From contig OY759214.1 of the NCBI GenBank assembly GCA_963662175.1, positions 5,146,001 through 5,210,000 on the forward strand: a stretch of 64,000 nucleotides of DNA. Reading direction: 5' to 3'. Under the pieces are notes generated by a model. That model made no database searches, was not told the origin of the DNA, and saw nothing but the letters and a program-made list of their open reading frames with translations. This DNA comes from Aradus depressus (lineage: Eukaryota; Arthropoda; Insecta; Hemiptera; Aradidae). Both the position numbers and the translations under genes were made by a program. Positions 1-34,582 of this stretch are shown piece after piece. Position 1 is the first letter of the stretch, and each line of letters starts with the position of its first letter.

Positions 1-1504
1 TTGGGTCGGTGAGATTCGAACCTCTGGTCCTCGTGTTGGTAGCATAAGAGATCCGTTAAATAAGTTGATTTGGGTCGGTGAGATTCGAACCTCTGGTCCT
101 CGTGTTGGTAACATAAGAGATCCGTTAAATAAGTTGATTTGGGTCGGTGATTTTCGAACCTCTGGTCCTCGTGTTGGTAACATAAGAGATCCGTTAAATA
201 AGTTGTTTTGGGTCGGTGAGATTCGAACCTCTGGTCCTCGTGTTGGTAACATAAGAGATCCGTTAAATAAGTTGATTTGGGTCGGTGAGATTTGAACCTC
301 TGGTCCTCGTGTTGGTAACATAAGAGATCCGTTAAATAAGTTAATTTGGCTCGGTGGGATTCGAACCTCTGGTCCTCGTGTTGGTAACATAAGAGATCCG
401 TTAAATAAGTTTATTTGTCTCGGTGAGATTCGAACCTCTGGTCCTCGTGTTGGTAACATAAGAGATCCGTTAAATAAGTTGATTTGGGTCGGTGAGATTC
501 GAACCTCTGGTCCTCGTGTTGGTAACATAAGAGATCCGTTAAATAAGTTGATTTGGGTCGGTGAGATTCGAACCTCTGGTCCTCGTGTTGGTAACATAAG
601 AGATCCGTTAAATAAATTGATTTGGGTCGGTGAGATTCGTAACTCTGGTCGTCGTATTGGTAACATAAGAGATCCGTTAAATAAGTTGATTTGGGTCGGT
701 GAGATTCGAACCTCTGGTCCTCGTGTTGGTAACATAAGAGATCCGTTAAATAAGTTAATTTGGTTCGGTGAGATTCGAACCTCTGGTCCTCGTGTTGGTA
801 ACATAAGAGATCCGTTAAATAAGTTAATTTGGGTCGGTGAGATTCGAACCTCTGGTCCTCGTGTTGGTAACATAAGAGATCCGTTAAATAAGTTGATTTG
901 GGTCGGTGATTTTCGAACCTCTGGTCCTCGTGTTGGTAACATAAGAGATCCGTTAAATAAGTTAATTTGGCTCGGTGGGATTCGAACCTCTGGTCCTCGT
1001 GTTGATAACATAAGTGATCCGTTAAATAAGTTGATTTGGGTCGGTGAGATTCGAACCTCTGGTCCTCGTGTTGGTAACATAAGAGATCCGTTAAATAAAT
1101 TGATTTGGGTCGGTGAGATTCGAAACTCTGGTCGTCGTATTGGTAACATAAGAGATCCGTTAAATAAGTTAATTTGGGTCGGTGAGATTCGAACCTCTGG
1201 TCCTCGTGTTAGTAACATAAGAGATCCGTTAAATAAGTTGATTTGGGTCGGTGAGATTCGAACCTCTGGTCCTCGTGTTGGTAACTTAAGAGATCCGTTA
1301 AATAAGTTGATTTGGGTCGGTGAGATTCGAACCTCTGGTCCTCGTGTTGGTAACATAAGAGATCCGTTAAATAAGTTAATTTGGGTCGGTGAGATTCGAA
1401 CCTCTGGTCCTCGTGTTGGTAACATAAGAGATCCGTTAAATAAGTTGATTTGGGTCGGTGAGATTCGAACCTCTGGTCCTCGTGTTGGTAACATAAGAGA
1501 TCCG

Positions 1505-4389
1505 TTAAATTTGGGTCGGTGAGATTCGAACTTCTGGTCCTCGTGTTGGTAACATAAGAGATCCGTTAAATAAGTTGATTTGGGTCGGTGAGATTCGAAT
1601 CTCTGGTCCTCGTGTTGGTAACATAAGAGATCCGTTAAATAAGTTGATTTGGATCGGTGAGATTCGAACCTCGGGTCCTCGTGTTGGTAACATAAGAGAT
1701 CCGTTAAATAAGTTTATTTGGGTCGGTGATTTTCGAACCTCTGGTCCTCGTGTTGGTAACATAAGAGATCCGTTAAATAAGTTAATTTGGCTCGGTGGGA
1801 TTCGAACCTCTGGTCCTCGTGTTGATAACATAAGTGATCCGTTAAATAAGTTGATTTGGGTCGGTGAGATTCGAACCTCTGGTCCTCGTGTTGGTAACAT
1901 AAGAGATCCGTTAAATAAGTTTATTTGGCTCGGTGGGATTCGAACCTCTGGTCCTCGTGTTGGTAACATAAGAGATCCGTTAAATAAGTTGATTTGGGTC
2001 AGTGGGATTCGAACCTCTGGTCCTCGTGTTGGTAACATAAGAGATCCGTTAAATAAATTGATTTGGGTCGGTGAGATTCGAAACTCTGGTCGTCGTATTG
2101 GTAACATAAGAGATCCGTTAAATAAGTTAATTTGGGTCGGTGAGATTCGAACCTCTGGTCCTCGTGTTAGTAACATAAGAGATCCGTTAAATAAGTTGAT
2201 TTGGGTCGGTGAGATTCGAACCTCTGGTCCTCGTGTTGGTAACATAAGAGATCCGTTAAATAAGTTAATTTGGGTCGGTGAGATTCGAACCTCTGGTCCT
2301 CGTGTTGGTAACATAAGAGATCCGTTAAATAAGTTGATTTGGGTCGGTGATTTTCGAACCTCTGGTCCTCGTGTTGGTAACATAAGAGATCCGTTAAATA
2401 AGTTAATTTGGCTCGGTGGGATTCGAACCTCTGGTCCTCGTGTTGATAACATAAGTGATCCGTTAAATAAGTTGATTTGGGTCGGTGAGATTCGAACCTC
2501 TGGTCCTCGTGTTGGTAACATAAGAGCTCCGTTAATAAGTTTATTTGGCTCGGTGGGATTCGAACCTCTGGTCCTCGTGTTGGTAACATAAGAGATCCGT
2601 TAAATAAGTTGATTTGGGTCAGTGGGATTCGAACCTCTGGTCCTCGTGTTGGTAACATAAGAGATCCGTTAAATAAATTGATTTGGGTCGGTGAGATTCG
2701 AAACTCTGGTCGTCGTATTGGTAACATAAGAGATCCGTTAAATAAGTTAATTTGGGTCGGTGAGATTCGAACCTCTGGTCCTCGTGTTAGTAACATAAGA
2801 GATCCGTTAAATAAGTTGATTTGGGTCGGTGAGATTCGAACCTCTGGTCCTCGTGTTGGTAACTTAAGAGATCCGTTAAATAAGTTGATTTGGGTCGGTG
2901 AGATTCGAACCTCTGGTCCTCGTGTTGGTAACATAAGAGATCCGTTAAATAAGTTAATTTGGGTCGGTGAGATTCGAACCTCTGGTCCTCGTGTTGGTAA
3001 CATAAGAGATCCGTTAAATAAGTTGATTTGGGTCGGTGAGATTCGAACCTCTGGTCCTCGTGTTGGTAACATAAGAGATCCGTTAAATTTGGGTCGGTGA
3101 GATTCGAACTTCTGGTCCTCGTGTTGGTAACATAAGAGATCCGTTAAATAAGTTGATTTGGGTCGGTGAGATTCGAATCTCTGGTCCTCGTGTTGGTAAC
3201 ATAAGAGATCCGTTAAATAAGTTGATTTGGATCGGTGAGATTCGAACCTCGGGTCCTCGTGTTGGTAACATAAGAGATCCGTTAAATAAGTTTATTTGGG
3301 TCGGTGATTTTCGAACCTCTGGTCCTCGTGTTGGTAACATAAGAGATCCGTTAAATAAGTTAATTTGGCTCGGTGGGATTCGAACCTCTGGTCCTCGTGT
3401 TGATAACATAAGTGATCCGTTAAATAAGTTGATTTGGGTCGGTGAGATTCGAACCTCTGGTCCTCGTGTTGGTAACATAAGAGATCCGTTAAATAAGTTT
3501 ATTTGGCTCGGTGGGATTCGAACCTCTGGTCCTCGTGTTGGTAACATAAGAGATCCGTTAAATAAGTTGATTTGGCTCGGTGGGATTCGAACCTCTGGTC
3601 CTCGTGTTGATAACATAAGTGATCCGTTAAATAAGTTGATTTGGGTCGGTGAGATTCGAACCTCTGGTCCTCGTGTTGGTAACATAAGAGATCCGTTAAA
3701 TAAGTTTATTTGGCTCGGTGGGATTCGAACCTCTGGTCCTCGTGTTGGTAACATAAGAGATCCGTTAAATAAGTTGATTTGGGTCAGTGGGATTCGAACC
3801 TCTGGTCCTCGTGTTGGTAACATAAGAGATCCGTTAAATAAATTGATTTGGGTCGGTGAGATTCGAAACTCTGGTCGTCGTATTGGTAACATAAGAGATC
3901 CGTTAAATAAGTTAATTTGGGTCGGTGAGATTCGAACCTCTGGTCCTCGTGTTAGTAACATAAGAGATCCGTTAAATAAGTTGATTTGGGTCGGTGAGAT
4001 TCGAACCTCTGGTCCTCGTGTTGGTAACATAAGAGATCCGTTAAATAAGTTAATTTGGGTCGGTGAGATTCGAACCTCTGGTCCTCGTGTTAGTAACATA
4101 AGAGATCCGTTAAATAAGTTGATTTGGGTCGGTGAGATTCGAACCTCTGGTCCTCGTGTTGGTAACATAAGAGATCCGTTAAATAAGTTGATTTGGGTCG
4201 GTGAGATTCGAACCTCTGGTCCTCGTGTTGGTAACATAAGAGATCCGTTAAATACGTTAATTTGGGTCGGTGAGATTCGAACCTCTGGTCCTCGTGTTGG
4301 TAACATAAGAGATCCGTTAAATAAGTTGATTTGGGTCGGTGAGATTCGAACCTCTGGTCCTCGTGTTGGTAACATAAGAGATCCGTTAA
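1505..4389. repeat. Higher-order repeat of 1,578 bp in the satellite
   Basis: Diagnostic variants recur 1,578 bp apart: the 8-bp-shorter junction unit at 1,508 and 3,086, and 'cgaatctctgg' near 1,597 and 3,175. The spacing equals 23 units minus an 8-bp deletion and a 1-bp deletion near 2,533. The second copy then diverges by gaining extra units before the next short unit at 4,389. Confidence 0.85.
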
Positions 4390-7300
4390 ATTTGGGTCGG
4401 TGAGATTCGAACTTCTGGTCCTCGTGTTGGTAACATAAGAGATCCGTTAAATAAGTTGATTTGGGTCGGTGAGATTCGAACCTCTGGTCCTCGTGTTGGT
4501 AACATAAGAGATCCGTTAAATAAGTTGATTTGGGTCGGTGAGATTCGAACCTCTGGTCCTCGTGTTGGTAACATAAGAGATCCGTTAAATAAGTTGATTT
4601 GGGTCGGTGAGATTCGAACCTCTGGTCCTCGTGTTGGTAACATAAGAGATCCGTTAAATAAATTGATTTGGGTCGGTGAGATTCGAAACTCTGGTCGTCG
4701 TATTGGTAACATAAGAGATCCGTTAAATAAGTTGATTTGGGTCGGTGAGATTCGAACCTCTCGTCCTCGTGTTGGTAACATAAGAGATCCGTTAAATAAG
4801 TTAATTTGGTTCGGTGAGCTTCGAACCTCTGGTACTCGTGTTGGTAACATAAGAGATCCGTTAAATAAGTTAATTTGGGTCGGTGAGATTCGAACCTCTG
4901 GTCCTCGTGTTGGTAACATAAGAGATCCGTTAAATCAGTTGATTTGGGTCGGTGAGATTCGAACCTCTGGTCCTCGTGTTGGTAACATAAGAGATCCGTT
5001 AAATAAGTTGATTTAGATCGGTGAGATTCGAACCTCTGGTCCTCGTGTTGGTAACATAAGAGATCCGTTAAATAAGTTGATTTGGGTCGGTGAGATTCGA
5101 ACCTCTGGTCCTCGTGTTGGTAACATAAGAGATCCGTTAAATAAGTTAATTTGGGTCGGTGAGATTCGAACCTCTGGTCCTCGTGTTGGTAACATAAGAG
5201 ATCCGTTAAATAAGTTAATTTGGCTCGGTGGGATTCGAACCTCTGGTCCTCGTGTTGGTAACATAAGAGATCCGTTAAATAAGTTAATTTGGCTCGGTGG
5301 GATTCGAACCTCTGGTCCTCGTGTTGATAACATAAGTGATCCGTTAAATAAGTTGATTTGGGTCGGTGAGATTCGAACCTCTGGTCCTCGTGTTGGTAAC
5401 ATAAGAGATCCGTTAAATAAGTTTATTTGGCTCGGTGGGATTCGAACCTCTGGTCCTCGTGTTGGTAACATAAGAGATCCGTTAAATAAGTTGATTTGGG
5501 TCAGTGGGATTCGAACCTCTGGTCCTCGTGTTGGTAACATAAGAGATCCGTTAAATAAATTGATTTGGGTCGGTGAGATTCGAAACTCTGGTCGTCGTAT
5601 TGGTAACATAAGAGATCCGTTAAATAAGTTAATTTGGGTCGGTGAGATTCGAACCTCTGGTCCTCGTGTTGGTAGCATAAGAGATCCGTTAAATAAGTTG
5701 ATTTGGGTCGGTGAGATTCGAACCTCTGGTCCTCGTGTTGGTAACATAAGAGATCCGTTAAATAAGTTGATTTGGGTCGGTGATTTTCGAACCTCTGGTC
5801 CTCGTGTTGGTAACATAAGAGATCCGTTAAATAAGTTGTTTTGGGTCGGTGAGATTCGAACCTCTGGTCCTCGTGTTGGTAACATAAGAGATCCGTTAAA
5901 TAAGTTGATTTGGGTCGGTGAGATTTGAACCTCTGGTCCTCGTGTTGGTAACATAAGAGATCCGTTAAATAAGTTAATTTGGCTCGGTGGGATTCGAACC
6001 TCTGGTCCTCGTGTTGGTAACATAAGAGATCCGTTAAATAAGTTGATTTGGGTCGGTGAGATTCGAACCTCTGGTCCTCGTGTTGGTAACATAAGAGATC
6101 CGTTAAATAAGTTAATTTGGCTCGGTGGGATTCGAACCTCTGGTCCTCGTGTTGGTAACATAAGAGATCCGTTAAATAAGTTGATTTGGGTCGGTGAGAT
6201 TCGAACCTCTGGTCCTCGTGTTGGTAACATAAGAGGTCCGTTAAATAAGTTGATTTGGGTCGGTGAGATTCGAACCTCTGGTCCTCGTGTTGGTAACATA
6301 AGAGATCCGTTAAATAAGTTGATTTGGGTCGGTGAGATTCGAACCTCTGGTCCTCGTGTTGGTAACATAAGAGATCCGTTAAATAAGTTGATTTGGGTCG
6401 GTGAGATTCGAACTTCTGGTCCTCGTGTTGGTAACATAAGAGATCCGTTAAATAAGTTGATTTGGATCGGTGAGATTTGAACCTCTGGTCCTCGTGTTGG
6501 TAACATAAGAGATCCGTTAAATAAGTTTATTTGGCTCGGTGAGATTCGAACTTCTGGTCCTCGTGTTGTTAACATAAGAGATCCGTTAAATAAATTGATT
6601 TGGGTCGGTGAGATTCGAACTTCTGGTCCTCGTGTTGTTAACATAAGAGATCCGTTAAATAAGTTGATTTGGGTCGGTGAGATTCGAAACTCTGGTCGTC
6701 GTATTGGTAACATAAGAGATCCGTTAAATAAGTTAATTTGGGTCGGTGAGATTCGAACCTCTGGTCCTCGTGTTAGTAACATAAGAGATCCGTTAAATAA
6801 GTTGATTTGGGTCGGTGAGATTCGAACCTCTGGTCCTCGTGTTGGTAACATAAGAGATCCGTTAAATAAGTTAATTTGGGTCGGTGAGATTCGAACCTCT
6901 GGTCCTCGTGTTAGTAACATAAGAGATCCGTTAAATAAGTTGATTTGGGTCGGTGAGATTCGAACCTCTGGTCCTCGTGTTGGTAACATAAGAGATCCGT
7001 TAAATAAGTTGATTTGGGTCGGTGAGATTCGAACCTCTGGTCCTCGTGTTGGTAACATAAGAGATCCGTTAAATAAGTTAATTTGGGTCGGTGAGATTCG
7101 AACCTCTGGTCCTCGTGTTGGTAACATAAGAGATCCGTTAAATAAGTTGATTTGGGTCGGTGAGATTCGAACCTCTGGTCCTCGTGTTGGTAACATAAGA
7201 GATCCGTTAAATTTGGGTCGGTGAGATTCGAACTTCTGGTCCTCGTGTTGGTAACATAAGAGATCCGTTAAATAAGTTGATTTGGGTCGGTGAGATTCGA

Positions 7301-9050
7301 ACCTCTGGCCCTCGTGTTGGTAACATAAGAGATCCGTTAAATAAGTTGATTTGGGTCGGTGAGATTCGAACCTCTGGTCCTCGTGTTGGTAACATAAGAG
7401 ATCCGTTAAATAAGTTGATTTGGGTCGGTGAGATTCGAACCTCTGGTCCTCGTGTTGGTAACATAAGAGATCCGTTAAATAAATTGATTTGGGTCGGTGA
7501 GATTCGAAACTCTGGTCGTCGTATTGGTAACATAAGAGATCCGTTAAATAAGTTGATTTGGGTCGGTGAGATTCGAACCTCTGGTCCTCGTGTTGGTAAC
7601 ATAAGAGATCCGTTAAATAAGTTAATTTGGTTCGGTGAGCTTCGAACCTCTGGTACTCGTGTTGGTAACATAAGAGATCCGTTAAATAAGTTAATTTGGG
7701 TCGGTGAGATTCGAACCTCTGGTCCTCGTGTTGGTAACATAAGAGATCCGTTAAATCAGTTGATTTGGGTCGGTGAGATTCGAACCTCTGGTCCTCGTGT
7801 TGGTAACATAAGAGATCCGTTAAATAAGTTGATTTAGATCGGTGAGATTCGAACCTCTGGTCCTCGTGTTGGTAACATAAGAGATCCGTTAAATAAGTTG
7901 ATTTGGGTCGGTGAGATTCGAACCTCTGGTCCTCGTGTTGGTAACATAAGAGATCCGTTAAATAAGTTAATTTGGGTCGGTGAGATTCGAACCTCTGGTC
8001 CTCGTGTTGGTAACATAAGAGATCCGTTAAATAAGTTAATTTGGCTCGGTGGGATTCGAACCTCTGGTCCTCGTGTTGGTAACATAAGAGATCCGTTAAA
8101 TAAGTTAATTTGGCTCGGTGGGATTCGAACCTCTGGTCCTCGTGTTGATAACATAAGTGATCCGTTAAATAAGTTGATTTGGGTCGGTGAGATTCGAACC
8201 TCTGGTCCTCGTGTTGGTAACATAAGAGATCCGTTAAATAAGTTTATTTGGCTCGGTGGGATTCGAACCTCTGGTCCTCGTGTTGGTAACATAAGAGATC
8301 CGTTAAATAAGTTGATTTGGGTCAGTGGGATTCGAACCTCTGGTCCTCGTGTTGGTAACATAAGGGATCCGTTAAATAAATTGATTTGGGTCGGTGAGAT
8401 TCGAAACTCTGGTCGTCGTATTGGTAACATAAGAGATCCGTTAAATAAGTTAATTTGGGTCGGTGAGATTCGAACCTCTGGTCCTCGTGTTGGTAGCATA
8501 AGAGATCCGTTAAATAAGTTGATTTGGGTCGGTGAGATTCGAACCTCTGGTCCTCGTGTTGGTAACATAAGAGATCCGTTAAATAAGTTGATTTGGGTCG
8601 GTGATTTTCGAACCTCTGGTCCTCGTGTTGGTAACATAAGAGATCCGTTAAATAAGTTGTTTTGGGTCGGTGAGATTCGAACCTCTGGTCCTCGTGTTGG
8701 TAACATAAGAGATCCGTTAAATAAGTTGATTTGGGTCGGTGAGATTTGAACCTCTGGTCCTCGTGTTGGTAACATAAGAGATCCGTTAAATAAGTTAATT
8801 TGGCTCGGTGGGATTCGAACCTCTGGTCCTCGTGTTGGTAACATAAGAGATCCGTTAAATAAGTTGATTTGGGTCGGTGAGATTCGAACCTCTGGTCCTC
8901 GTGTTGGTAACATAAGAGATCCGTTAAATAAGTTAATTTGGCTCGGTGGGATTCGAACCTCTGGTCCTCGTGTTGGTAACATAAGAGATCCGTTAAATAA
9001 GTTGATTTGGGTCGGTGAGATTCGAACCTCTGGTCCTCGTGTTGGTAACA
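4389..9050. repeat. Higher-order repeat of 2,821 bp in the satellite
   Basis: Landmarks at 4,389, 5,013, 5,928 and 6,043 reappear at 7,210, 7,834, 8,749 and 8,864, always 2,821 bp later. This equals 41 units minus one 8-bp deletion. Rare variants such as 'ggtactcgtg' and 'taaatcagttg' are shared. Similarity between copies is lost after about 6,230 and 9,050. Confidence 0.87.
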
Positions 9051-9689
9051 TAAGAGATCCGTTAAATAAGTTGATTTGGGTCGGTGAGATTCGAACCTCT
9101 GGTCCTCGTGTTGGTAACATAAGAGATCCGTTAAATAAGTTGATTTGGGTCGGTGAGATTCGAACCTCTGGTCCTCGTGTTGGTAACATAAGAGATCCGT
9201 TAAATAACTTGATTTGGGTCGGTGAGATTCGAACCTCTGGTCCTCGTGTTGGTAACATAAGAGATCCGTTAAATAAGTTGATTTGGGTCGGTGAGATTCG
9301 AACTTCTGGTCCTCGTGTTGGTAACATAAGAGATCCGTTAAATAAGTTGATTTGGGTCGGTGAGATTCGAACCTCTGGTCCTCGTGTTGGTAACATAAGA
9401 GATCCGTTAAATAAGTTAATTTGGCTCGGTGGGATTCGAACCTCTGGTCCTCGTGTTGGTAACATAAGAGATCCGTTAAATAAGTGGATTTGGGTCGGTG
9501 AGATTCGAACCTCTGGTCCTCGTGTTGGTAACATAAGAGATCCGTTAAATAAGTTGATTTGGGTCGGTGAGATTCGAACCTCTGGTCCTCGTGTTGGTAA
9601 CATAAGAGATCCGTTAAATAATTTAATTTGGCTCGGTGGGATTCGAACCTCTGGTCCTCGTGTTGGTAACATAAGAGATCCGTTAAATA

Positions 9690-10470
9690 AGTTTAATTGG
9701 GTCGGTGAGATTCGAACCTCTGGTCCTCGTGTTGGTAACATAAGAGATCCGTTAAAAAAGTTGATTTGGGTCGGAGAGATTCGAACGTCTGGTCCTCGTG
9801 TTGGTAACATAAAAGATCCGTTAAATAAGTTGATTTGGCTCGGTGGGATTCGAACCTCTGGTCCTCGTGTTGGTAACATAAGAGATCCGTTAAATAAGTT
9901 GAATTGGGTCGGTGAGATTCGAACCTCTGGTCCTTGTGTTGGTAACATAAGAGATCCGTTAAATAAGTTGATTTGGGTCGGAGAGATTCGAACGTCTGGT
10001 CCTCGTGTTGGTAACATAAGAGATCCGTTAAATAATTTAATTTGGCTCGGTGGGATTCGAACCTCTGGTCCTCGTGTTGGTAACATAAGAGATCCGTTAA
10101 ATAAGTTGAATTGGGTCGGTGAGATTCGAACCTCTGGTCCTCGTGTTGGTAACATAAGAGATCCGTTAAAAAAGTTGATTTGGGTCGGAGAGATTCGAAC
10201 GTCTGGTCCTCGTGTTGGTAACATAAGAGATCCGTTAAATAAGTTGATTTGGCTCGGTGGGATTCGAACCTCTGGTCCTCGTGTTGGTAACATAAGAGAT
10301 CCGTTAAATAAGTTGAATTGGGTCGGTGAGATTCGAACCTCTGGTCCTTGTGTTGGTAACATAAGAGATCCGTTAAATAAGTTGATTTGGGTCGGAGAGA
10401 TTCGAACGTCTGGTCCTCGTGTTGGTAACATAAGAGATCCGTTAAATAATTTAATTTGGCTCGGTGGGAT
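9690..10470. repeat. Six-unit (414-bp) higher-order repeat in the satellite
   Basis: The rare variants 'gttaaaaaagttg' (9,755 and 10,169) and 'ccttgtgttgg' (9,932 and 10,346) recur exactly 414 bp apart, which is six units. This marks a short local duplication. Confidence 0.75.
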
Positions 10471-19100: not shown

Positions 19101-20299
19101 CCTCTGGTCCTCGTGTTGGTAACATAAGAGATCCGTTAAATAAGTTGATTTGGGTCGGTGAGATTCGAACCTCTGGTCCTCGTGTTGGTAACATAAGAGA
19201 TCCGTTAAATAAGTTGATTTGGGTCGGTGAGATTCGAACCTCTGGTCCTCGTGTTGGTAACATAAGAGATCCGTTAAATAAATTGATTTGGGTCGGTGAG
19301 ATTCGAACCTCTGGTCCTCGTGTTGGTAACATAAGAGATCCGTTAAATAAGTTGATTTGGGTCGGTGAGATTCGAACCTCTGGTCCTCGTGTTGGTAACA
19401 TAAGAGATCCGTTAAATAAGTTGATTTGGGTCGGTGAGATTCGAACCTCTGGTCCTCGTGTTGGTAACATAAGAGATCCGTTAAATAAGTTGATTTGGGT
19501 CGGTGAGATTCGAACCTCTGGTCCTCGTGTTGGTAACATAAGAGATCCGTTAAATAAGTTGATTTGGGTCGGTGAGATTCGAACCTCTGGTCCTCGTGTT
19601 GGTAACATAAGAGATCCGTTAAATAAGTTGATTTGGGTCGGTGAGATTCGAACCTCTGGTCCTCGTGTTGGTAACATAAGAGATCCGTTAAATAAGTTGA
19701 TTTGGGTCGGTGAGATTCGAACCTCTGGTCCTCGTGTTGGTAACATAAGAGATCCGTTAAATAAGTTGATTTGGGTCGGTGAGATTCGAACCTCTGGTCC
19801 TCGTGTTGGTAACATAAGAGATCCGTTAAATAAGTTGATTTGGGTCGGTGAGATTCGAACCTCTGGTCCTTGTGTTGGTAACATAAGAGATCCGTTAAAT
19901 AAATTGATTTGGGTCGGTGAGATTCGAAACTCTTGTCGTCGTATTGGTAACATAAGAGATCCGTTAAATAAGTTGATTTGGGTCGGTGAGATTCGAACCT
20001 CTGGTCCTCGTGTTGGTAACATAAGAGATCCGTTAAATAAGTTAATTTGGTTCGGTGAGATTCGAACCTCTGGTCCTCGTGTTGGTAACATAAGAGATCC
20101 GTTAAATAAGTTAGTTTGGGTCGGTGAGATTCGAACCTCTTGTCCTCGTGTTGGTAACATAAGAGATCCGTTAAATAAGTTGATTTGGGTCGGTGAGATT
20201 CGAACCTCTGGTCCTCGTGTTGGTAACATAAGAGATCCGTTAAATAAGTTAATTTGGGTCGGTGAGATTCGAACCTCTGGTCCTCGTTTTGGTAACATA

Positions 20300-21760: not shown

Positions 21761-22079
21761 AATAAGTTGATTTGGGTCGGTGAGATTCGAACCTCTGGTC
21801 CTCGTGTTGGTAACATAAGAGATCCGTTAAATAAGTTGATTTGGTTCGGTGAGATTCGAACCTCTGGTCCTCGTGTTGGTAACATAAGAGATCCGTTAAA
21901 TAAGTTAATTTGGGTCGGTGAGATTCGAACCTCTGGTGCTCGTGTTGGTAACATAAGAGATCCGTTAAATAAGTTGATTTGGGTCGGTGAGATTCGAACC
22001 TCTGGTCCTCGTGTTGGTAACATAAGAGATCCGTTAAATAAGTTGATTTGGGTCGGTGAGATTTGAACCTCTGGTCCTC

Positions 22080-25000
22080 GTGTTGGTAACATTATTGATC
22101 CGTTAAATAAGTTGATTTGGGTCGGTGAGATTCGAACCTCTGGTCCTCGTGTTGGTAACATAAGAGATCCGTTAAATAAGTTGATTTGGGTCGGTGAGAT
22201 TCGAACCTCTGGTCCTCGTGTTGGTAACACAAGAGATCCGTTAAATAAGTTGATTTGGGTCGGTGAGATTCGAACCTCTGGTCCTCGTGTTGGTAACATA
22301 AGAGATCCGTTAAATAAATTGATTTGGGTCGGTGAGATTCGAAACTCTTGTCGTCGTATTGGTAACATAAGAGATCCGTTAAATAAGTTGATTTGGGTCG
22401 GTGAGATTCGAACCTCTGGTCCTCGTGTTGGTAACATAAGAGATCCGTTAAATAAGTTAATTTGGTTCGGTGAGATTCGAACCTCTGGTCCTCGTGTTGG
22501 TAACATAAGAGATCCGTTAAATAAGTTAATTTGGGTCGGTGAGATTCGAACCTCTGGTCCTCGTGTTGGTAACATAAGAGATCCGTTAAATAAGTTGATT
22601 TGGGTCGGTGAGATTCGAACCTCTGGTCCTCGTGTTGGTAACATAAGAGATCCGTTAAATAAGTTAATTTGGGTCGGTGAGATTCGAACCTCTGGTCCTC
22701 GTGTTGGTAACATGAGAGATCCGTTAAATAAGTTAATTTGGCTCGGTGGGATTCGAACCTCTGGTCCTCGTGTTGGTAACATAAGAGATCCGTTAAATAA
22801 GTTGATTTGGGTCGGTGAGATTCGAACCTCTGGTCCTCGTGTTGGTAACATAAGAGATCCGTTAAATAAGTTGATTTGGGTCGGTGAGATTCGAACCTCT
22901 GGTCCTCGTGTTGGTAACTTAAGAGATCCGTTAAATAATTTAATTTGGCTCGGTGGGATTCGAACCTCTGGTCCCCGTGTTGGTAACATAAGAGATCCGT
23001 TAAATAAGTTGAATTGGGTCGGTGAGATTCGAACCTCTGGTCCTCGTGTTGGTAACATAAGAGATCCGTTAAAAAAGTTGATTTGGGTCGGAGAGATTCG
23101 AACGTCTGGTCCTCGTGTTGGTAACATAAGAGATCCGTTAAATAAGTTGATTTGGGTCGGTGAGATTCGAACCTCTGGTCCTCGTGTTGGTAACATAAGA
23201 GATCCGTTGAATAAGTTGATTTGGGTCGGTGAGATTCGAACCTCTGGTCCTCGTGTTGGTAACATAAGAGATCCGTTAAATAAGTTAATTTGGGTCGGTG
23301 AGATTCGAACCTCTGGTCCTCGTGTTGGTAACATAAGAGATCCGTTAAATAAGTTGATTTGGGTCGGTGAGATTCGAACCTCTGGTCCTCGTGTTGGTAA
23401 CATAAGAGATCCGTTAAATAAGTTGATTTGGGTCGGTGAGATTCGAACCTCTGGTCCTCGTGTTGGTAACATAAGAGATCCGTTAAATAAGTTAATTTGG
23501 GTCGGTGAGATTCGAACCTCTGGTCCTCGTGTTGGTAACATAAGAGATCCGTTAAATAAGTTGATTTGGGTCGGTGAGATTCGAACCTCTGGTCCTCGTG
23601 TTGGTAACATAAGAGATCCGTTAAATAAGTTGATTTGGGTCGGTGAGATTCGAACCTCTGGTCCTCGTGTTGGTAACACAAGAGATCCGTTAAATAAGTT
23701 GATTTGGGTCGGTGAGATTCGAACCTCTGGTCCTCGTGTTGGTAACATAAGAGATCCGTTAAATAAATTGATTTGGGTCGGTGAGATTCGAAACTCTGGT
23801 CCTCGTGTTGGTAACATAAGAGATCCGTTAAATAAGTTAATTTGGTTCGGTGAGATTCGAACCTCTGGTCCTCGTGTTGGTAACATATGAGATCCGTTAA
23901 ATAAGTTGATTTGGGTCGGTGAGATTCGAACCTCTGGTCCTCGTGTTGGTAACATAAGAGATCCGTTAAATAAGTTGATTTGGGTCGGTGAGATTCGAAC
24001 CTCTGGTCCTCGTGTTGGTAACATAATTGATCCGTTAAATAAGTTGATTTGGGTCGGTGAGATTCGAACCTCTGGTCCTCGTGTTGGTAACATAAGAGAT
24101 CCGTTAAATAAGTTGATTTGGGTCGGTGAGATTCGAACCTCTGGTCCTCGTGTTGGTAACAAAAGAGATCCGTTAAATAAGTTAATTTGGCTCGGTGGGA
24201 TTCGAAACTCTTGTCGTCGTATTGGTAACATAAGAGATCCGTTAAATAAGTTGATTTGGGTCGGTGAGATTCGAACCTCTGGTCCTCGTGTTGGTAACAT
24301 AAGAGATCCGTTAAATAAGTTGATTTGGTTCGGTGAGATTCGAACCTCTGGTCCTCGTGTTGGTAACATAAGAGATCCGTTAAATAAGTTAATTTGGGTC
24401 GGTGAGATTCGAACCTCTGGTCCTCGTGTTGGTAACATAAGAGATCCGTTAAATAAGTTGATTTGGGTCGGTGAGATTCGAACCTCTGGTCCTCGTGTTG
24501 GTAACATAAGAGATCCGTTAAATAAGTTGATTTGGGTCGGTGAGATTTGAACCTCTGGTCCTCGTGTTGGTAACATTATTGATCCGTTAAATAAGTTGAT
24601 TTGGGTCGGTGAGATTCGAACCTCTGGTCCTCGTGTTGGTAACATAAGAGATCCGTTAAATAAGTTGATTTGGGTCGGTGAGATTCGAACCTCTGGTCCT
24701 CGTGTTGGTAACACAAGAGATCCGTTAAATAAGTTGATTTGGGTCGGTGAGATTCGAACCTCTGGTCCTCGTGTTGGTAACATAAGAGATCCGTTAAATA
24801 AATTGATTTGGGTCGGTGAGATTCGAAACTCTTGTCGTCGTATTGGTAACATAAGAGATCCGTTAAATAAGTTGATTTGGGTCGGTGAGATTCGAACCTC
24901 TGGTCCTCGTGTTGGTAACATAAGAGATCCGTTAAATAAGTTAATTTGGTTCGGTGAGATTCGAACCTCTGGTCCTCGTGTTGGTAACATAAGAGATCCG

Positions 25001-28000
25001 TTAAATAAGTTAATTTGGGTCGGTGAGATTCGAACCTCTGGTCCTCGTGTTGGTAACATAAGAGATCCGTTAAATAAGTTGATTTGGGTCGGTGAGATTC
25101 GAACCTCTGGTCCTCGTGTTGGTAACATAAGAGATCCGTTAAATAAGTTAATTTGGGTCGGTGAGATTCGAACCTCTGGTCCTCGTGTTGGTAACATGAG
25201 AGATCCGTTAAATAAGTTAATTTGGCTCGGTGGGATTCGAACCTCTGGTCCTCGTGTTGGTAACATAAGAGATCCGTTAAATAAGTTGATTTGGGTCGGT
25301 GAGATTCGAACCTCTGGTCCTCGTGTTGGTAACATAAGAGATCCGTTAAATAAGTTGATTTGGGTCGGTGAGATTCGAACCTCTGGTCCTCGTGTTGGTA
25401 ACTTAAGAGATCCGTTAAATAATTTAATTTGGCTCGGTGGGATTCGAACCTCTGGTCCTCGTGTTGGTAACATAAGAGATCCGTTAAATAAGTTGAATTG
25501 GGTCGGTGAGATTCGAACCTCTGGTCCTCGTGTTGGTAACATAAGAGATCCGTTAAAAAAGTTGATTTGGGTCGGAGAGATTCGAACGTCTGGTCCTCGT
25601 GTTGGTAACATAAGAGATCCGTTAAATAAGTTGATTTGGGTCGGTGAGATTCGAACCTCTGGTCCTCGTGTTGGTAACATAAGAGATCCGTTAAATAAGT
25701 TGATTTGGGTCGGTGAGATTCGAACCTCTGGTCCTCGTGTTGGTAACATAAGAGATCCGTTAAATAAGTTGATTTGGGTCGGTGAGATTCGAACCTCTGG
25801 TCCTCGTGTTGGTAACATAAGAGATCCGTTAAATAAGTTGATTTGGGTCGGTGAGATTCGAACCTCTGGTCCTCGTGTTGGTAACATAAGAGATCCGTTA
25901 AATAAGTTGATTTGGGTCGGTGAGATTCGAACCTCTGGTCCTCGTGTTGGTAACATAAGAGATCCGTTAAATAAGTTGATTTGGGTCGGTGAGATTTGAA
26001 CCTCTGGTCCTCGTGTTGGTATCATTATTGATCCGTTAAATAAGTTGATTTGGGTCGGTGAGATTCGAACCTCTGGTCCTCGTGTTGGTAACATAAGAGA
26101 TCCGTTAAATAAGTTGATTTGGGTCGGTGAGATTCGAACCTCTGGTCCTCGTGTTGGTAACACAAGAGATCCGTTAAATAAGTTGATTTGGGTCGGTGAG
26201 ATTCGAACCTCTGGTCCTCGTGTTGGTAACATAAGAGATCCGTTAAATAAATTGATTTGGGTCGGTGAGATTCGAAACTCTGGTCCTCGTGTTGGTAACA
26301 TAAGAGATCCGTTAAATAAGTTAATTTGGTTCGGTGAGATTCGAACCTCTGGTCCTCGTGTTGGTAACATAAGAGATCCGTTAAATAAGTTAATTTGGGT
26401 CGGTGAGATTCGATCCTCTGGTCCTCGTGTTGGTAACATAAGAGATCCGTTAAATAAGTTGATTTGGGTCGGTGAGATTCGAACCTCTGGTCCTCGTGTT
26501 GGTAACATAAGAGATCCGTTAAATAAGTTAATTTGGGTCGGTGAGATTCGAACCTCTGGTCCTCGTGTTGGTAACATGAGAGATCCGTTAAATAAGTTAA
26601 TTTGGCTCGGTGGGATTCGAACCTCTGGTCCTCGTGTTGGTAACATAAGAGATCCGTTAAATAAGTTGATTTGGGTCGGTGAGATTCGAACCTCTGGTCC
26701 TCGTGTTGGTAACATAAGAGATCCGTTAAATAAGTTGATTTGGGTCGGTGAGATTCGAACCTCTGGTCCTCGTGTTGGTAACTTAAGAGATCCGTTAAAT
26801 AATTTAATTTGGCTCGGTGGGATTCGAACCTCTGGTCCTCGTGTTGGTAACATAAGAGATCCGTTAAATAAGTTGAATTGGGTCGGTGAGATTCGAACCT
26901 CTGGGCCTCGTGTTGGTAACATAAGAGATCCGTTAAAAAAGTTGATTTGGGTCGGAGAGATTCGAACGTCTGGTCCTCGTGTTGGTAACATAAGAGATCC
27001 GTTAAATAAGTTAATTTGGTTCGGTGAGATTCGAACCTCTGGTCCTCGTGTTGGTAACATAAGAGATCCGTTAAATAAGTTGATTTGGGTCGGTGAGATT
27101 CGAACCTCTGGTCCTCGTGTTGGTAACATAAGAGATCCGTTAAATAAGTTGATTTGGGTCGGTGAGATTCGAACCTCTGGTCCTCGTGTTGGTAACATAA
27201 TTGATCCGTTAAATAAGTTGATTTGGGTCGGTGAGATTCGAACCTCTGGTCCTCGTGTTGGTAACATAAGAGATCCGTTAAATAAGTTGATTTGGGTCGG
27301 TGAGATTCGAACCTCTGGTCCTCGTGTTGGTAACAAAAGAGATCCGTTAAATAAGTTAATTTGGCTCGGTGGGATTCGAAACTCTTGTCGTCGTATTGGT
27401 AACATAAGAGATCCGTTAAATAAGTTGATTTGGGTCGGTGAGATTCGAACCTCTGGTCCTCGTGTTGGTAACATAAGAGATCCGTTAAATAAGTTGATTT
27501 GGTTCGGTGAGATTCGAACCTCTGGTCCTCGTGTTGGTAACATAAGAGATCCGTTAAATAAGTTAATTTGGGTCGGTGAGATTCGAACCTCTGGTCCTCG
27601 TGTTGGTAACATAAGAGATCCGTTAAATAAGTTGATTTGGGTCGGTGAGATTCGAACCTCTGGTCCTCGTGTTGGTAACATAAGAGATCCGTTAAATAAG
27701 TTGATTTGGGTCGGTGAGATTTGAACCTCTGGTCCTCGTGTTGGTAACATTATTGATCCGTTAAATAAGTTGATTTGGGTCGGTGAGATTCGAACCTCTG
27801 GTCCTCGTGTTGGTAACATAAGAGATCCGTTAAATAAGTTGATTTGGGTCGGTGAGATTCGAACCTCTGGTCCTCGTGTTGGTAACACAAGAGATCCGTT
27901 AAATAAGTTGATTTGGGTCGGTGAGATTCGAACCTCTGGTCCTCGTGTTGGTAACATAAGAGATCCGTTAAATAAATTGATTTGGGTCGGTGAGATTCGA

Positions 28001-30240
28001 AACTCTTGTCGTCGTATTGGTAACATAAGAGATCCGTTAAATAAGTTGATTTGGGTCGGTGAGATTCGAACCTCTGGTCCTCGTGTTGGTAACATAAGAG
28101 ATCCGTTAAATAAGTTAATTTGGTTCGGTGAGATTCGAACCTCTGGTCCTCGTGTTGGTAACATAAGAGATCCGTTAAATAAGTTAATTTGGGTCGGTGA
28201 GATTCGAACCTCTGGTCCTCGTGTTGGTAACATAAGAGATCCGTTAAATAAGTTGATTTGGGTCGGTGAGATTCGAACCTCTGGTCCTCGTGTTGGTAAC
28301 ATAAGAGATCCGTTAAATAAGTTAATTTGGGTCGGTGAGATTCGAACCTCTGGTCCTCGTGTTGGTAACATGAGAGATCCGTTAAATAAGTTAATTTGGC
28401 TCGGTGGGATTCGAACCTCTGGTCCTCGTGTTGGTAACATAAGAGATCCGTTAAATAAGTTGATTTGGGTCGGTGAGATTCGAACCTCTGGTCCTCGTGT
28501 TGGTAACATAAGAGATCCGTTAAATAAGTTGATTTGGGTCGGTGAGATTCGAACCTCTGGTCCTCGTGTTGGTAACTTAAGAGATCCGTTAAATAATTTA
28601 ATTTGGCTCGGTGGGATTCGAACCTCTGGTCCTCGTGTTGGTAACATAAGAGATCCGTTAAATAAGTTGAATTGGGTCGGTGAGATTCGAACCTCTGGTC
28701 CTCGTGTTGGTAACATAAGAGATCCGTTAAAAAAGTTGATTTGGGTCGGAGAGATTCGAACGTCTGGTCCTCGTGTTGGTAACATAAGAGATCCGTTAAA
28801 TAAGTTGATTTGGGTCGGTGAGATTCGAACCTCTGGTCCTCGTGTTGGTAACATAAGAGATCCGTTAAATAAGTTGATTTGGGTCGGTGAGATTCGAACC
28901 TCTGGTCCTCGTGTTGGTAACATAAGAGATCCGTTAAATAAGTTGATTTGGGTTGGTGAGATTCGAACCTCTGGTCCTCGTGTTGGTAACATAAGAGATC
29001 CGTTAAATAAGTTAATTTGGGTCGGTGAGATTCGAACCTCTGGTCCTCGTGTTGGTAACATAAGAGATCCGTTAAATAAGTTGATTTGGGTCGGTGAGAT
29101 TCGAACCTCTGGTCCTCGTGTTGGTAACATAAGAGATCCGTTAAATAAGTTGATTTGGGTCGGTGAGATTTGAACCTCTGGTCCTCGTGTTGGTATCATT
29201 ATTGATCCGTTAAATAAGTTGATTTGGGTCGGTGAGATTCGAACCTCTGGTCCTCGTGTTGGTAACATAAGAGATCCGTTAAATAAGTTGATTTGGGTCG
29301 GTGAGATTCGAACCTCTGGTCCTCGTGTTGGTAACACAAGAGATCCGTTAAATAAGTTGATTTGGGTCGGTGAGATTCGAACCTCTGGTCCTCGTGTTGG
29401 TAACATAAGAGATCCGTTAAATAAATTGATTTGGGTCGGTGAGATTCGAAACTCTGGTCCTCGTGTTGGTAACATAAGAGATCCGTTAAATAAGTTAATT
29501 TGGTTCGGTGAGATTCGAACCTCTGGTCCTCGTGTTGGTAACATAAGAGATCCGTTAAATAAGTTAATTTGGGTCGGTGAGATTCGATCCTCTGGTCCTC
29601 GTGTTGGTAACATAAGAGATCCGTTAAATAAGTTGATTTGGGTCGGTGAGATTCGAACCTCTGGTCCTCGTGTTGGTAACATAAGAGATCCGTTAAATAA
29701 GTTAATTTGGGTCGGTGAGATTCGAACCTCTGGTCCTCGTGTTGGTAACATGAGAGATCCGTTAAATAAGTTAATTTGGCTCGGTGGGATTCGAACCTCT
29801 GGTCCTCGTGTTGGTAACATAAGAGATCCGTTAAATAAGTTGATTTGGGTCGGTGAGATTCGAACCTCTGGTCCTCGTGTTGGTAACATAAGAGATCCGT
29901 TAAATAAGTTGATTTGGGTCGGTGAGATTCGAACCTCTGGTCCTCGTGTTGGTAACTTAAGAGATCCGTTAAATAATTTAATTTGGCTCGGTGGGATTCG
30001 AACCTCTGGTCCTCGTGTTGGTAACATAAGAGATCCGTTAAATAAGTTGAATTGGGTCGGTGAGATTCGAACCTCTGGGCCTCGTGTTGGTAACATAAGA
30101 GATCCGTTAAAAAAGTTGATTTGGGTCGGAGAGATTCGAACGTCTGGTCCTCGTGTTGGTAACATAAGAGATCCGTTAAATAAGTTGATTTGGGTCGGTG
30201 AGATTCGAACCTCTGGTCCTCGTGTTGGTAACATAAGAGA
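22080..30240. repeat. 3,174-bp (46-unit) higher-order repeats with 21-, 25- and 36-unit substructure
   Basis: The 'attattgatcc' variant falls at about 22,089, 24,573, 26,022, 27,747 and 29,196. The intervals are 2,484, 1,449, 1,725 and 1,449 bp (36, 21, 25 and 21 units). The further variant 'tatcattattg' is found only at the third and fifth positions, so the true repeat is 3,174 bp (46 units) present nearly twice. This is the largest periodicity seen and probably a recent amplification. Confidence 0.87.
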
Positions 30241-30939
30241 TCCGTTAAATAAGTTGATTTGGGTCGGTGAGATTCGAACCTTTAGTCCTCGTGTTGGTAA
30301 CATAAGAGATCCGTTAAATAAGTTGATTTGGGTCGGTGAGATTCGAACCTCTGGTCCTCGTGTTGGTAACATAAGAGATCCGTTAAATAAGTTGATTTGG
30401 GTCGGTGAGATTCGAACCTCTGGTCCTCGTGTTGGTAACATAAGAGATCCGTTAAATAAATTGATTTGGGTCGGTGAGATTCGAAACTCTGGTCGTCGTA
30501 TTGGTAACATAAGAGATCCGTTAAATATGTTGATTTGGGTCGGTGAGATTCGAACCTCTGGTCCTCGTGTTGGTAACATAAGAGATCCGTTAAATAAGTT
30601 AATTTGGTTCGGTGAGATTCGAACCTCTGGTCCTCGTGTTGGTAACATAAGAGATCCGTTAAATAAGTTAATTTGGGTCGGTGAGATTCGAACCTCTGGT
30701 CCTCGTGTTGGTAACATAAGAGATCCGTTAAATAAGTTGATTTGGGTCGGTGAGATTCGAACCTCTGGTCCTCGTGTTGGTAACATAAGAGATCCGTTAA
30801 ATAAGTTAATTTGGGTCGGTGAGATTCGAACCTCTGGTCCTCGTGTTGGTAACATAAGAGATCCGTTAAATAAGTTAATTTGGCTCGGTGGGATTCGAAC
30901 CTCTGGTCCTCGTGTTGGTAACATAAGAGATCCGCTAAA

Positions 30940-32540
30940 TAAGTTAATTTGGCTCGGTGGGATTCGAACCTCTGGTCCTCGTGTTGATAACATAAGTGAT
31001 CCGTTAAATAAGTTGATTTGGGTCGGTGAGATTCGAACCTCTGGTCCTCGTGTTGGTAACATAAGAGATCCGTTAAATAAGTTTATTTGGCTCGGTGGGA
31101 TTCGAACCTCTGGTCCTCGTGTTGGTAACATAAGAGATCCGTTAAATAAGTTGATTTGGGTCAGTGGGATTCGAACCTCTGGTCCTCGTGTTGGTAACAT
31201 AAGAGATCCGTTAAATAAATTGATTTGGGTCGGTGAGATTCGAAACTCTGGTCGTCGTAATGGTAACATAAGAGATCCGTTAAATAAGTTGATTTGGGTC
31301 GGTGATTTTCGAACCTCTGGTCCTCGTGTTGGTAACATAAGAGATCCGTTAAATAAGTTGTTTTGGGTCGGTGAGATTCGAACCTCTGGTCCTCGTGTTG
31401 GTAACATAAGAGATCCGTTAAATAAGTTGAATTGGGTCGGTGAGATTCGAACCTCTGGTCCTCGTGTTGGTAACATAAGAGATCCGTTAAATAAGTTAAT
31501 TTGGCTCGGTGGGATTCGAACCTCTGGTCCTCGTGTTGGTAACATAAGAGATCCGTTAAATAAGTTAATTTGGCTCGGTGGGATTCGAACCTCTGGTCCT
31601 CGTGTTGATAACATAAGTGATCCGTTAAATAAGTTGATTTGGGTCGGTGAGATTCGAACCTCTGGTCCTCGTGTTGGTAACATAAGAGATCCGTTAAATA
31701 AGTTAATTTGGCTCGGTGGGATTCGAACCTCTGGTCCTCGTGTTGGTAACATAAGAGATCCGTTAAATAAGTTGAATTGGGTCGGTGAGATTCGAACCTC
31801 TGGTCCTCGTGTTGGTAACATAAGAGATCCGTTAAATAAGTTAATTTGGGTCGGTGAGATTCGAACCTCTGGTCCTCGTGTTGGTAACATAAGAGATCCG
31901 TTAAATAAGTTAATTTGGGTCGGTGAGATTCGAACCTCTGGTCCTCGTGTTGGTAACATAAGAGATCCGTTAAATAAGTTAATTTGGCTCGGTGGGATTC
32001 GAACCTCTGGTCCTCGTGTTGGTAACATAAGAGATCCGTTAAATAAGTTAATTTGGCTCGGTGGGATTCGAACCTCTGGTCCTCGTGTTGATAACATAAG
32101 TGATCCGTTAAATAAGTTGATTTGGGTCGGTGAGATTCGAACCTCTGGTCCTCGTGTTGGTAACATAAGAGATCCGTTAAATAAGTTAATTTGGCTCGGT
32201 GGGATTCGAACCTCTGGTCCTCGTGTTGGTAACATAAGAGATCCGTTAAATAAGTTGATTTGGGTCAGTGGGATTCGAACCTCTGGTCCTCGTGTTGGTA
32301 ACATAAGAGATCCGTTAAATAAATTGATTTGGGTCGGTGAGATTCGAAACTCTGGTCGTCGTAATGGTAACATAAGAGATCCGTTAAATAAGTTGATTTG
32401 GGTCGGTGATTTTCGAACCTCTGGTCCTCGTGTTGGTAACATAAGAGATCCGTTAAATAAGTTGTTTTGGGTCGGTGAGATTCGAACCTCTGGTCCTCGT
32501 GTTGGTAACATAAGAGATCCGTTAAATAAGTTGATTTGGG
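30940..32540. repeat. 16-unit (1,104-bp) higher-order repeat in the satellite
   Basis: The private variant 'gtcgtcgtaatgg' is found at 31,251 and 32,355, 1,104 bp or 16 units apart, with the same order of neighbouring variants ('gttgataacataagtg', 'gggtcagtggg'). Confidence 0.8.
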
Positions 32541-33169
32541 TCGGTGAGATTCGAATCTCTGGTCCTCGTGTTGGTAACATAAGAGATCCGTTAAATAAGT
32601 TAATTTGGCTCGGTGGGATTCGAACCTCTGGTCCTCGTGTTGGTAACATAAGAGATCCGTTAAATAAGTTGATTTGGGTCGGTGAGATTCGAACCTCTGG
32701 TCCTCGTGTTGTTAACATAAGAGATCCGTTAAATAAGTTGATTTGGGTCGGTGAGATTCGAACCTCTGGTCCTCGTGTTGGTAACATAAGAGATCCGTTA
32801 AATAAGTTGATTTGGGTCGGTGAGATTCGAACCTCTGGTCCTCGTGTTGGTAACATAAGAGATCTGTTAAATAAGTTAATTTGGCTCGGTGGGATTCGAA
32901 CCTCTGGTCCTCGTGTTGGTAACATAAGAGATCCGTTAAATAAGTTGATTTGTGTCGGTGAGATTCGAACCTCTGGTCCTCGTGTTGGTAACATAAGAGA
33001 TCCGTTAAATAAGTTGATTTGGGTCGGTGAGATTCGAACCTCTGGTCCTCGTGTTGGTAACATAAGAGATCTGTTAAATAAGTTAATTTGGCTCGGTGGG
33101 ATTCGAACCTCTGGTCCTCGTGTTGGTAACATAAGAGATCCGTTAAATAAGTTGAATTGGGTCGGTGAG

Positions 33170-34250
33170 ATTCGAACTTCTGGTCCTCGTGTTGGTAACA
33201 TAAGAGATCCGTTAAATAAGTTGATTTGGGTCGGAGAGATTCGAACGTCTGGTCCTCGTGTTGGTAACATAAGAGATCCGTTAAATAAGTTGATTTGGGT
33301 CGGTGAGATTCGAACCTCTGGTCCTCGTGTTGGTAACATAAGAGATCCGTTAAATAAGTTAATTTGGGTCGGTGAGATTCGAACCTCTGGTCCTCGTGTT
33401 GGTAACATAAGAGATCCGTTAAATAAGTTGATTTGGGTCGGTGAGATTCGAACCTCTGGTCCTCGTGTTGGTAACATAAGAGATCCGCTAAATAAGTTGA
33501 TTTGGGTCGGTGAGATTCGAACCTCTGGTCCTCGTGTTGGTAACATAAGAGGTCCGTTAAATAAGTTGATTTGGGTCGGTGAGATTCGAACCTCTGGTCC
33601 TCGTGTTGGTAACATAAGAGATCCGTTAAATAAGTTGATTTGGGTCGGTGAGATTCGAACTTCTGGTCCTCGTGTTGGTAACATAAGAGATCCGTTAAAT
33701 AAGTTGATTTGGGTCGGAGAGATTCGAACGTCTGGTCCTCGTGTTGGTAACATAAGAGATCCGTTAAATAAGTTGATTTGGGTCGGTGAGATTCGAACCT
33801 CTGGTCCTCGTGTTGGTAACATAAGAGATCCGTTAAATAAGTTAATTTGGGTCGGTGAGATTCGAACCTCTGGTCCTCGTGTTGGTAACATAAGAGATCC
33901 GTTAAATAAGTTGATTTGGGTCGGTGAGATTCGAACCTCTGGTCCTCGTGTTGGTAACATAAGAGATCCGTTAAATAAGTTGATTTGGGTCGGTGAGATT
34001 CGAACCTCTGGTCCTCGTGTTGGTAACATAAGAGGTCCGTTAAATAAGTTGATTTGGGTCGGTGAGATTCGAACCTCTGGTCCTCGTGTTGGTAACATAA
34101 GAGATCCGTTAAATAAGTTGATTTGGGTCGGTGAGATTCGAACCTCTGGTCCTCGTGTTGGTAACATAAGAGATCCGTTAAATAAGTTGATTTGGGTCGG
34201 TGAGATTCGAACCTCTGGTCCTCGTGTTGGTAACATAAGAGATCCGTTAA
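33170..34250. repeat. Seven-unit (483-bp) higher-order repeat at the right end of the satellite
   Basis: The marker 'ggagagattcgaacg' (33,233 and 33,716) and 'agaggtccg' (33,550 and 34,033) repeat 483 bp apart, equal to seven units. This is the last higher-order block before the array ends. Confidence 0.78.
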
Positions 34251-34582
34251 ATAAGTTAATTTGGGTCGGTGAGATTCGAACCTCCGGTCCTCGTGTTGGT
34301 AACATAAGAGATCCGTTAAATAAGTTGATTTGGGTCGGTGAGATTCGAACCTCTGGTCCTCGTGTTGGTAACATAAGAGATCCGTTAAATAAGTTGATTT
34401 GGGTCGGTGAGATTCGAACCTCTGGTCCTCGTGTTGGTAACATAAGAGATCCGTTAAATAAGTTAATTTGGGTCGGTGAGATTCGAACCTCTGGTCCTCG
34501 TGTTGGTAACATAAGAGATCCGGTTAAATAAGTTAATTTGGGTCGGTGGGATTCTCTACAAATGGGGTTGATTGCTACATGA

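What the first reader, a model, noticed from the sequence alone, without database searches (positions are those of the whole stretch)
1..34554. A ~34.5-kb satellite in which every 69-bp unit carries a Pol III B box
About 500 consecutive units contain GGTTCGAATC[TC] on the minus strand, matching the TFIIIC-bound B box, with no A box seen. B-box-only loci (extra-TFIIIC sites) are known to bind TFIIIC and shape chromatin in yeast and animals. An array this dense could act as a TFIIIC sink, boundary or non-coding RNA source. The likely origin is amplification of a tRNA- or SINE-derived T-arm; SINE-like heads with the same B box occur elsewhere in the window.
Basis: partly seen in the sequence, partly recalled or inferred. 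Interest (0 to 1): 0.75.

Follow-up and report, generated by a model that had tools for sequence, protein, structure and literature searches.

The report
B-box satellite kin to Helentron repeats
A long run of a 69-letter repeat in an unnamed, probably insect, genome carries a tRNA-gene docking motif in most copies; it belongs to a family of such repeats, one of which is spread around the genome inside a rolling-circle type transposon, but nothing here shows that the motif is used.

Summary
Window 1-34554 is a 69-bp satellite (501 full units); 401 of 501 carry the exact B box GGTTCGAATC[T/C] and 448 of 501 keep five bases contacted by human TFIIIC. No A box rises above chance. The array continues left of the window to about 106.5-108.3 kb.

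It is not isolated. The genome holds a family of 66-70-bp B-box satellites (53-89% alike). One member is the central repeat of a dispersed ~3.1-kb element (two copies compared: 99.7% identical) with Helentron-like ends, whose 5' region is shared with Rep-bearing Helitrons at 3 of 4 loci tested. The same monomer forms long arrays on C4 and C14, and matches a tRNA-Arg 3' half in 27 of 33 columns; the window's monomer alone does not.

Best reading: a tRNA-3'-half-like monomer, spread at least in part by Helentron-like elements and amplified locally; the B box is inherited and perhaps TFIIIC-competent. Across ten family types the B box is the best-conserved stretch (rank 1 of 70, with an ascertainment caveat), so constraint is not excluded.

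The parts
1..34554 (-). 69-bp satellite array (right part of an array of about 106.5-108.3 kb); B box GGTTCGAATC[T/C] on the minus strand in 401 of 501 full units; B box at positions 48-57 of the minus-strand unit that starts ATCAACTTATTT
   Evidence: left extent
34540..34554 (-). last, broken unit: the array stops inside the B-box region
   Evidence: sequence read; TRF end
34583..34636 (.). two overlapping inverted repeats just right of the array edge (TGTGCTCACAATT/AATTGTGAGCACA and CAATTTCTCAGGTAATTG/CAATTACCTGAGAAATTG)
   Evidence: read by eye; one search also lists a self match of 34591-34636 in reverse
34798..36480 (+). dispersed repeat of unknown class that borders the array (start approximate; 36480 is only where my query stopped)
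   Evidence: 59 matches in the genome incl. the locus itself, many beginning near query position 240

Best explanation
The array is a large member of a family of 66-70-bp satellites whose monomer carries a TFIIIC B box, probably from the 3' half of a tRNA gene, and no A box. One branch of the family is the central tandem repeat of a dispersed non-coding element with Helentron-like ends; that branch most likely spread by rolling-circle transposition with the enzymes of a Rep-bearing Helitron family that shares its 5' region, and in places the repeats grew into long arrays. The window's branch (69% identical to the element's monomer) most likely arose in a similar way and was amplified and homogenised by unequal exchange or rolling-circle copying. 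Shown: the family, the element, the shared 5' region, the homogeneity, the missing A box. Inferred: that the window's own branch passed through such an element, that the tRNA-like segment is a true tRNA relic, and that the B boxes are carried along without being needed. They may still bind TFIIIC; without an A box they should not drive Pol III transcripts.
For: Family of 66-70-bp arrays in one register. Dispersed element with the repeat inside: 10 of 10 dispersed loci read show the same irregular 69-bp array; two copies 99.7% identical over 2740 bp. Start TCAGG after A in the 6 of 7 5'-end windows that held the start; 3' palindrome and T run in 3 of 7 3'-end windows (A, B, L110; the others fell elsewhere in or outside the copy); GGCCAAGT[C/A]CGAAAAAA inverted near both ends. 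Rep-bearing copies carry parts of the element's first 389 bp at 3 of 4 loci. Same monomer as long arrays on C4 (117 copies) and C14 (495 of 522 cut units kept). tRNA-Arg 3' half 27 of 33 columns, score 34 against shuffle maximum 23. In the window array units with a broken contact base are also multiplied (53 copies, 20 distinct, up to 7 each), and the B box ranks 44 of 69.
Against: No transposon end was found at the window array, and its monomer is only 69% identical to the element's. The window monomer alone is not significantly tRNA-like, and Rfam and ARAGORN find no tRNA. The B box ranks first across ten family types and third of 69 in the C14 arrays, which a pure relic would not predict. 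The target is A-T, not the TT reported for Helentrons. One of the four Rep loci does not share the 5' region. An endonuclease domain and a shared 3' end in the partner were not tested.
Confidence: 0.6

Rival explanations
1. Local amplification only: a tRNA- or SINE-derived T-arm segment was duplicated in place and grew into the array; the transposon branch is a side line that picked up the repeat.
For: No element ends seen at the window array; arrays of several other branches (C2, C12) have no shared flanks in the loci compared, apart from arrays and other repeats (output cut, and 97).
Against: One branch is certainly carried by a dispersed element; no SINE source was found for any branch. L006, L007 and L009 do share long flanks, so a window-type short array is also part of a larger repeated segment.
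Confidence: 0.18
2. TFIIIC-binding array under selection: extra-TFIIIC-like sites in tandem that act as a boundary, nuclear anchor or TFIIIC sink.
For: 448 of 501 units keep five contact bases; B box is the best-conserved ten columns across ten family types (0.93 against 0.83) and ranks 3 of 69 in C14.
Against: Rank 44 of 69 in the window array; contact columns no better than random columns (window P 0.65; C14 P 0.29, base-matched 0.12); other single arrays rank 19, 18, 11, 52, 21 and 6; families were found with a query containing the B box, which biases.
Confidence: 0.12
3. The B box is a chance likeness: a satellite that happens to hold a TTCGAA palindrome, with no tRNA ancestry.
For: Window monomer is not significantly tRNA-like alone (25 against shuffle maximum 26); no Rfam match up to E 10 in window 1-2000; no RNA fold beyond shuffles.
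Against: The sister monomer's likeness to a tRNA-Arg 3' half extends over 33 columns, and the box recurs in the other branches, exactly or with a change.
Confidence: 0.07
4. A Pol III-transcribed satellite, like Xenopus OAX, making short non-coding RNA.
For: B box present; 238 of 495 C14 units hold a TTTT run that could stop Pol III.
Against: No A box; TTTT in only 12 of 501 window units; no stable RNA fold.
Confidence: 0.03

Closest known systems
Helentron non-autonomous elements (HINE, DINE-1, Cg_HINE) with central tandem repeats
   Same: Dispersed, non-coding, central tandem array; 5' inverted repeat, short inverted motif near both ends, 3' palindrome, T run at the end; Rep-bearing partner shares the 5' region; repeats also occur as long satellites (compare PMC4067079 and PMC7492417, passages read; PMC9659126 passages).
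   Different: The monomer is 69 bp (oyster elements mostly 140-180 bp) and carries a B box; the target is A-T in the copies seen, not TT; extra 286-bp inverted repeat around a loop at the 3' side. Shown for the sister monomer, not for the window's array.
tRNA-containing tandem families: Xenopus OAX/satellite 1, newt PolIII/TAN, Rana/polIII, SINE-derived satellites of reptiles
   Same: Tandem repeats with a tRNA-like part (PMC10702118, Background section read).
   Different: Those units are much longer (about 200-750 bp; the 750 of OAX is recalled) and the newt repeat is transcribed in vitro; here the unit is 69 bp with a B box only, and no SINE was found.
ETC (extra TFIIIC) loci
   Same: B box without evidence of a Pol III gene.
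   Different: ETC sites are defined by TFIIIC occupancy without TFIIIB and Pol III (PMC12409998, passages read); here there are hundreds of boxes in tandem and no occupancy data.

Membership tests
Satellite DNA | Long head-to-tail array of a homogeneous unit | tested here: met
   501.2 copies in the window, total about 106.5-108.3 kb by samples; mean pairwise identity 95.9%
ETC locus | B box present | tested here: met
   401 of 501 exact, 448 of 501 with five contact bases
ETC locus | TFIIIC bound, TFIIIB and Pol III absent | not testable with these tools
   needs ChIP
Pol III type 2 (tRNA-like) gene | A box upstream of the B box | tested here: not met
   best A-box score 3.4 against 13.6-17.7 in tRNAs; shuffle fraction 0.24
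tRNA gene or pseudogene | Recognised by a tRNA model | tested here: not met
   ARAGORN 0; Rfam 0 in the window at gathering and 0 at E<=10 in 1-2000; no tRNA match at E<=1 in five related loci
HINE (Helentron non-autonomous), for the sister element | 5' inverted repeat, inverted motif near both ends, 3' palindrome, T run, central tandem repeats | tested here: met
   read in the C1 and C3 copies; T run also at the C4 copy (L110)
HINE (Helentron non-autonomous), for the sister element | Insertion at TT | tested here: not met
   A before TCAGG in 6 of 6 copies whose start was seen; one empty-site reading by eye points to A-T (L109/L110). PMC4067079 describes an A-T intermediate
HINE (Helentron non-autonomous), for the sister element | Autonomous partner with the same ends and a Rep/helicase/endonuclease protein | tested here: inconclusive
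   5' region shared at 3 of 4 Rep loci; 3' end and endonuclease not tested
HINE central repeat, for the window array itself | Array lies inside an element with those ends | tested here: not met
   right flank 34555-36480 read and searched: no such end seen; left edge not read
SINE | Interspersed tRNA-headed element with A and B boxes and a LINE-type tail | tested here: not met
   no A box in the unit; the dispersed copies read are array-carrying elements

The most novel reading that the evidence does not exclude
A rolling-circle transposon disperses ready-made clusters of TFIIIC docking sites (16 good B boxes in about 25 units in the copy counted) and seeds giant B-box arrays; TFIIIC bound there gives the element or the host something, such as open chromatin, a boundary or a nuclear address, and this keeps the B box while the rest of the monomer drifts.
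Probability: 0.12. Interest if true: 0.8.

Novelty: new variant of a known kind. Interest (0 to 1): 0.48.

Why it matters
Helentron-borne satellites and tRNA-containing satellites are each known. A Helentron-like element whose central repeat is a B-box monomer joins the two, and gives a natural test of whether TFIIIC binds, or is titrated by, hundreds to thousands of B boxes that have no A box. One ChIP experiment in this species could settle it.

Tried and rejected
Higher-order repeat: lag identity is flat (best 0.965 against median 0.960), rejected. RNA-level function: no fold beyond shuffles in four sequences, rejected. Rfam and ARAGORN: no tRNA; the one Rfam line, MIR6019 in L002 outside its array, is far under its cut-off (39 against 100) and was set aside. 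Public viral contigs: 0 matches to one pattern. Papers holding four stretches of the monomers' letters: 0. Naming the organism: not possible; the one protein search gave three distant hits and no useful name. 'Insect' is inference from genome size, repeats and gene style, not from a call. No search gave a count of the window's own monomer elsewhere in the genome (skips very common words), and the search with the B box masked did not complete, so the bias stands.
Full report
OBSERVATION. The array is real: 1-34554, period 69, 501.2 copies. Cut into units, 501 are full and 98 distinct; mean pairwise identity is 95.9% (5000 random pairs) and identity to the consensus 97.7%. The exact 10-mer GGTTCGAATC is in 401 of 501 units, followed by T in 326 and C in 75; 402 in the window against 0.29 expected. 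So 'every unit' is too strong. Samples of the assembly show that the window cuts the array: 14 of 14 samples from C1:5,074,001 to 5,146,000 are array; those at 5,072,001 and 5,060,001 are not. The total is about 106.5-108.3 kb, the stretches between samples being unread.

B BOX AND A BOX. The human TFIIIC structure paper (PMC11811891, passages read) lists base contacts which I map, through its own statement that C69 and G70 correspond to C56 and G57, to G53, T55, C56, G57, C61 and C62. The first five are kept together in 448 of 501 window units, all six in 76 of 501, since C62 is kept in only 16%. In the C14 arrays the figures are 315 of 495 and 296 of 495. A matrix from eight A boxes of this genome's own tRNA genes finds nothing above shuffles in either monomer on either strand. 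TTTT runs, possible Pol III stops, are in 12 of 501 window units and 238 of 495 C14 units. RNA folds are no better than shuffles.

A FAMILY OF B-BOX SATELLITES. A search of the window's own genome (698 Mb, 74 contigs, unnamed) with 2 kb of the array returned 36 places, all on other contigs; the tool skips very common words, so the array itself and close copies are not listed. Of the 30 loci held, 26 show a 66-70-bp tandem array by TRF; L010, L022, L026 and L027 show none even at a lower cut-off and were dropped. Thirteen consensuses align in one register with conserved blocks near ATCAACTTATTT, GTTACCAAC and the B box. For counts I dropped three rows that are near-copies of the element's monomer (L003, L087, L023); the remaining ten are 53-89% identical to each other.

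A TRANSPOSON CARRIES ONE BRANCH. A pattern for the family has 184 exact matches genome-wide and none in the reversed control; 100 are listed, at about 60 places on seven contigs by my own count. All ten dispersed loci that I read hold the same irregular 69-bp array, with the same 25- and 94-bp sub-repeats; an eleventh, L087 on C4, is a long array. The C1 and C3 copies are 99.7% identical over 2740 bp. The element starts TCAGGAGACACGGCAGTGTCTC. Of seven 5'-end windows looked at (A, B, L105, L107, L109, L111, L113) six held the start, each after an A; L107 did not hold it; a seventh start after A is. The 3' end, a palindrome and T run, was seen in 3 of 7 windows (A, B, L110); L106, L108 and L114 missed it and L112 fell inside the element. 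GGCCAAGT[C/A]CGAAAAAA lies inverted near both ends. The 3' part is a 286-bp inverted repeat around a loop of about 130 bp that lies in opposite orientations in the two copies. One copy sits in a reverse-transcriptase-like frame that, read by eye, continues on the other side (L109, L110). [quoted passage not shown]

THE PARTNER. The genome has 93 matches to Helitron_like_N, none in 14 control genomes; many lie in long open frames, 1484 codons in one group and 2300 or so in another. For the second group, a stretch read 4 kb before one Rep match (L121) proved to hold parts of the element's first 389 bp. I then predicted the place at three further Rep loci: L122 and L123 hold it, in rearranged pieces at 89.5-100% identity, L124 (a shorter frame) does not. 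In all, 3 of 4. At C1:24.636-24.639 Mb a B-box element lies just upstream of such a copy; the 1.3 kb between the two stretches was not read. The same monomer also forms long arrays: 117 copies over 8 kb on C4 (L087) and, in six stretches read (36.6 kb) between 14.65 and 15.02 Mb of C14, 522 cut units, of which 495 passed a 60% identity filter.

WHERE THE B BOX CAME FROM. The element's monomer matches tRNA-Arg(CCT) of this genome in 27 of 33 alignment columns, from the anticodon loop to the acceptor: score 34, against 16.4 mean and 23 maximum in 300 single-base shuffles. Only 12 tRNA sequences of seven isoacceptors were at hand, so the true source may be another tRNA. The window monomer scores 25 against a shuffle maximum of 26: not significant alone.

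IS THE B BOX KEPT BY SELECTION? In the window array, no: rank 44 of 69 ten-column windows, contact columns like random columns (P 0.65), and units with a broken contact base multiplied too (53 copies of 20 kinds). In C14 the box ranks 3 of 69, or 4 when distinct units are counted once, but the contact bases alone do not stand out (P 0.29, base-matched 0.12). Six other sets rank 19, 18, 11, 52 (of 66), 21 and 6 (of 70). Across ten family types the box ranks 1 of 70, 0.93 against 0.83. These loci were found with a B-box-bearing query, which biases that rank upward; the search that would remove the bias did not complete. 'Relic' and 'weakly constrained' both remain open; relic is simpler.

WHAT IS KNOWN. 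Satellite-like repeats carried by Helentron non-autonomous elements are described in oyster (PMC7492417, passages), and DINE repeats giving satellites are tabulated in PMC9659126 (passages). tRNA-containing tandem families are listed in PMC10702118 (Background section and passages). ETC sites are reviewed in PMC12409998 (passages). PMC5874043 (passages) searched scallop satellites for A and B boxes; its result on that was not in the passages seen. My ten paper searches showed no title or abstract start that describes a Helentron-borne B-box satellite; they cover open-licence PMC texts only, and most hits were seen as listings.

VERDICT. A genuine, large B-box satellite; no SINE source found; member of a satellite family of which one branch rides an element with Helentron-like ends. 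The route of the window's own branch is inferred. TFIIIC binding is plausible and untested.

Noticed in passing
window 55574-57709 (-), with flanks about 55345-55485 and 57779-57910: 711-codon frame with distant hits to proteins bearing integrase domains (27% identity at best) and, as far as read, no reverse transcriptase; flanked by near-identical direct repeats of about 130 bp, so perhaps a non-autonomous LTR-type element.
   Followed up: partly
window 58660-60290: 162-bp tandem repeats on both strands (58909-59601 and 59779-60290) that read as repeated HNSFLVQASSLYNSLPP-type peptides.
   Followed up: no
window 36490-36935: A second, unrelated tandem array that also has a period of 69 bp (6.5 copies).
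   Followed up: no
window 38053-39652: Tc1-like transposase relic with a 326-bp direct duplication at its 5' side (family name from recall).
   Followed up: no
L092+L081+L093 (C1:3412500-3423500) and L094+L086+L095 (C3:10602400-10612500): The element's 286-bp inverted repeat flanks a loop of about 130 bp that is inverted between the two copies.
   Followed up: partly
L090 (C6:10822000-10828300): An element copy in which the internal array seems expanded, with pattern matches spaced about 990-1128 bp.
   Followed up: no
G000:C14 (16.4 Mb contig): A small contig very rich in family arrays and Helitron copies, including six 2343-codon frames between 2.73 and 2.86 Mb; L006, L007 and L009 there share long flanks.
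   Followed up: no
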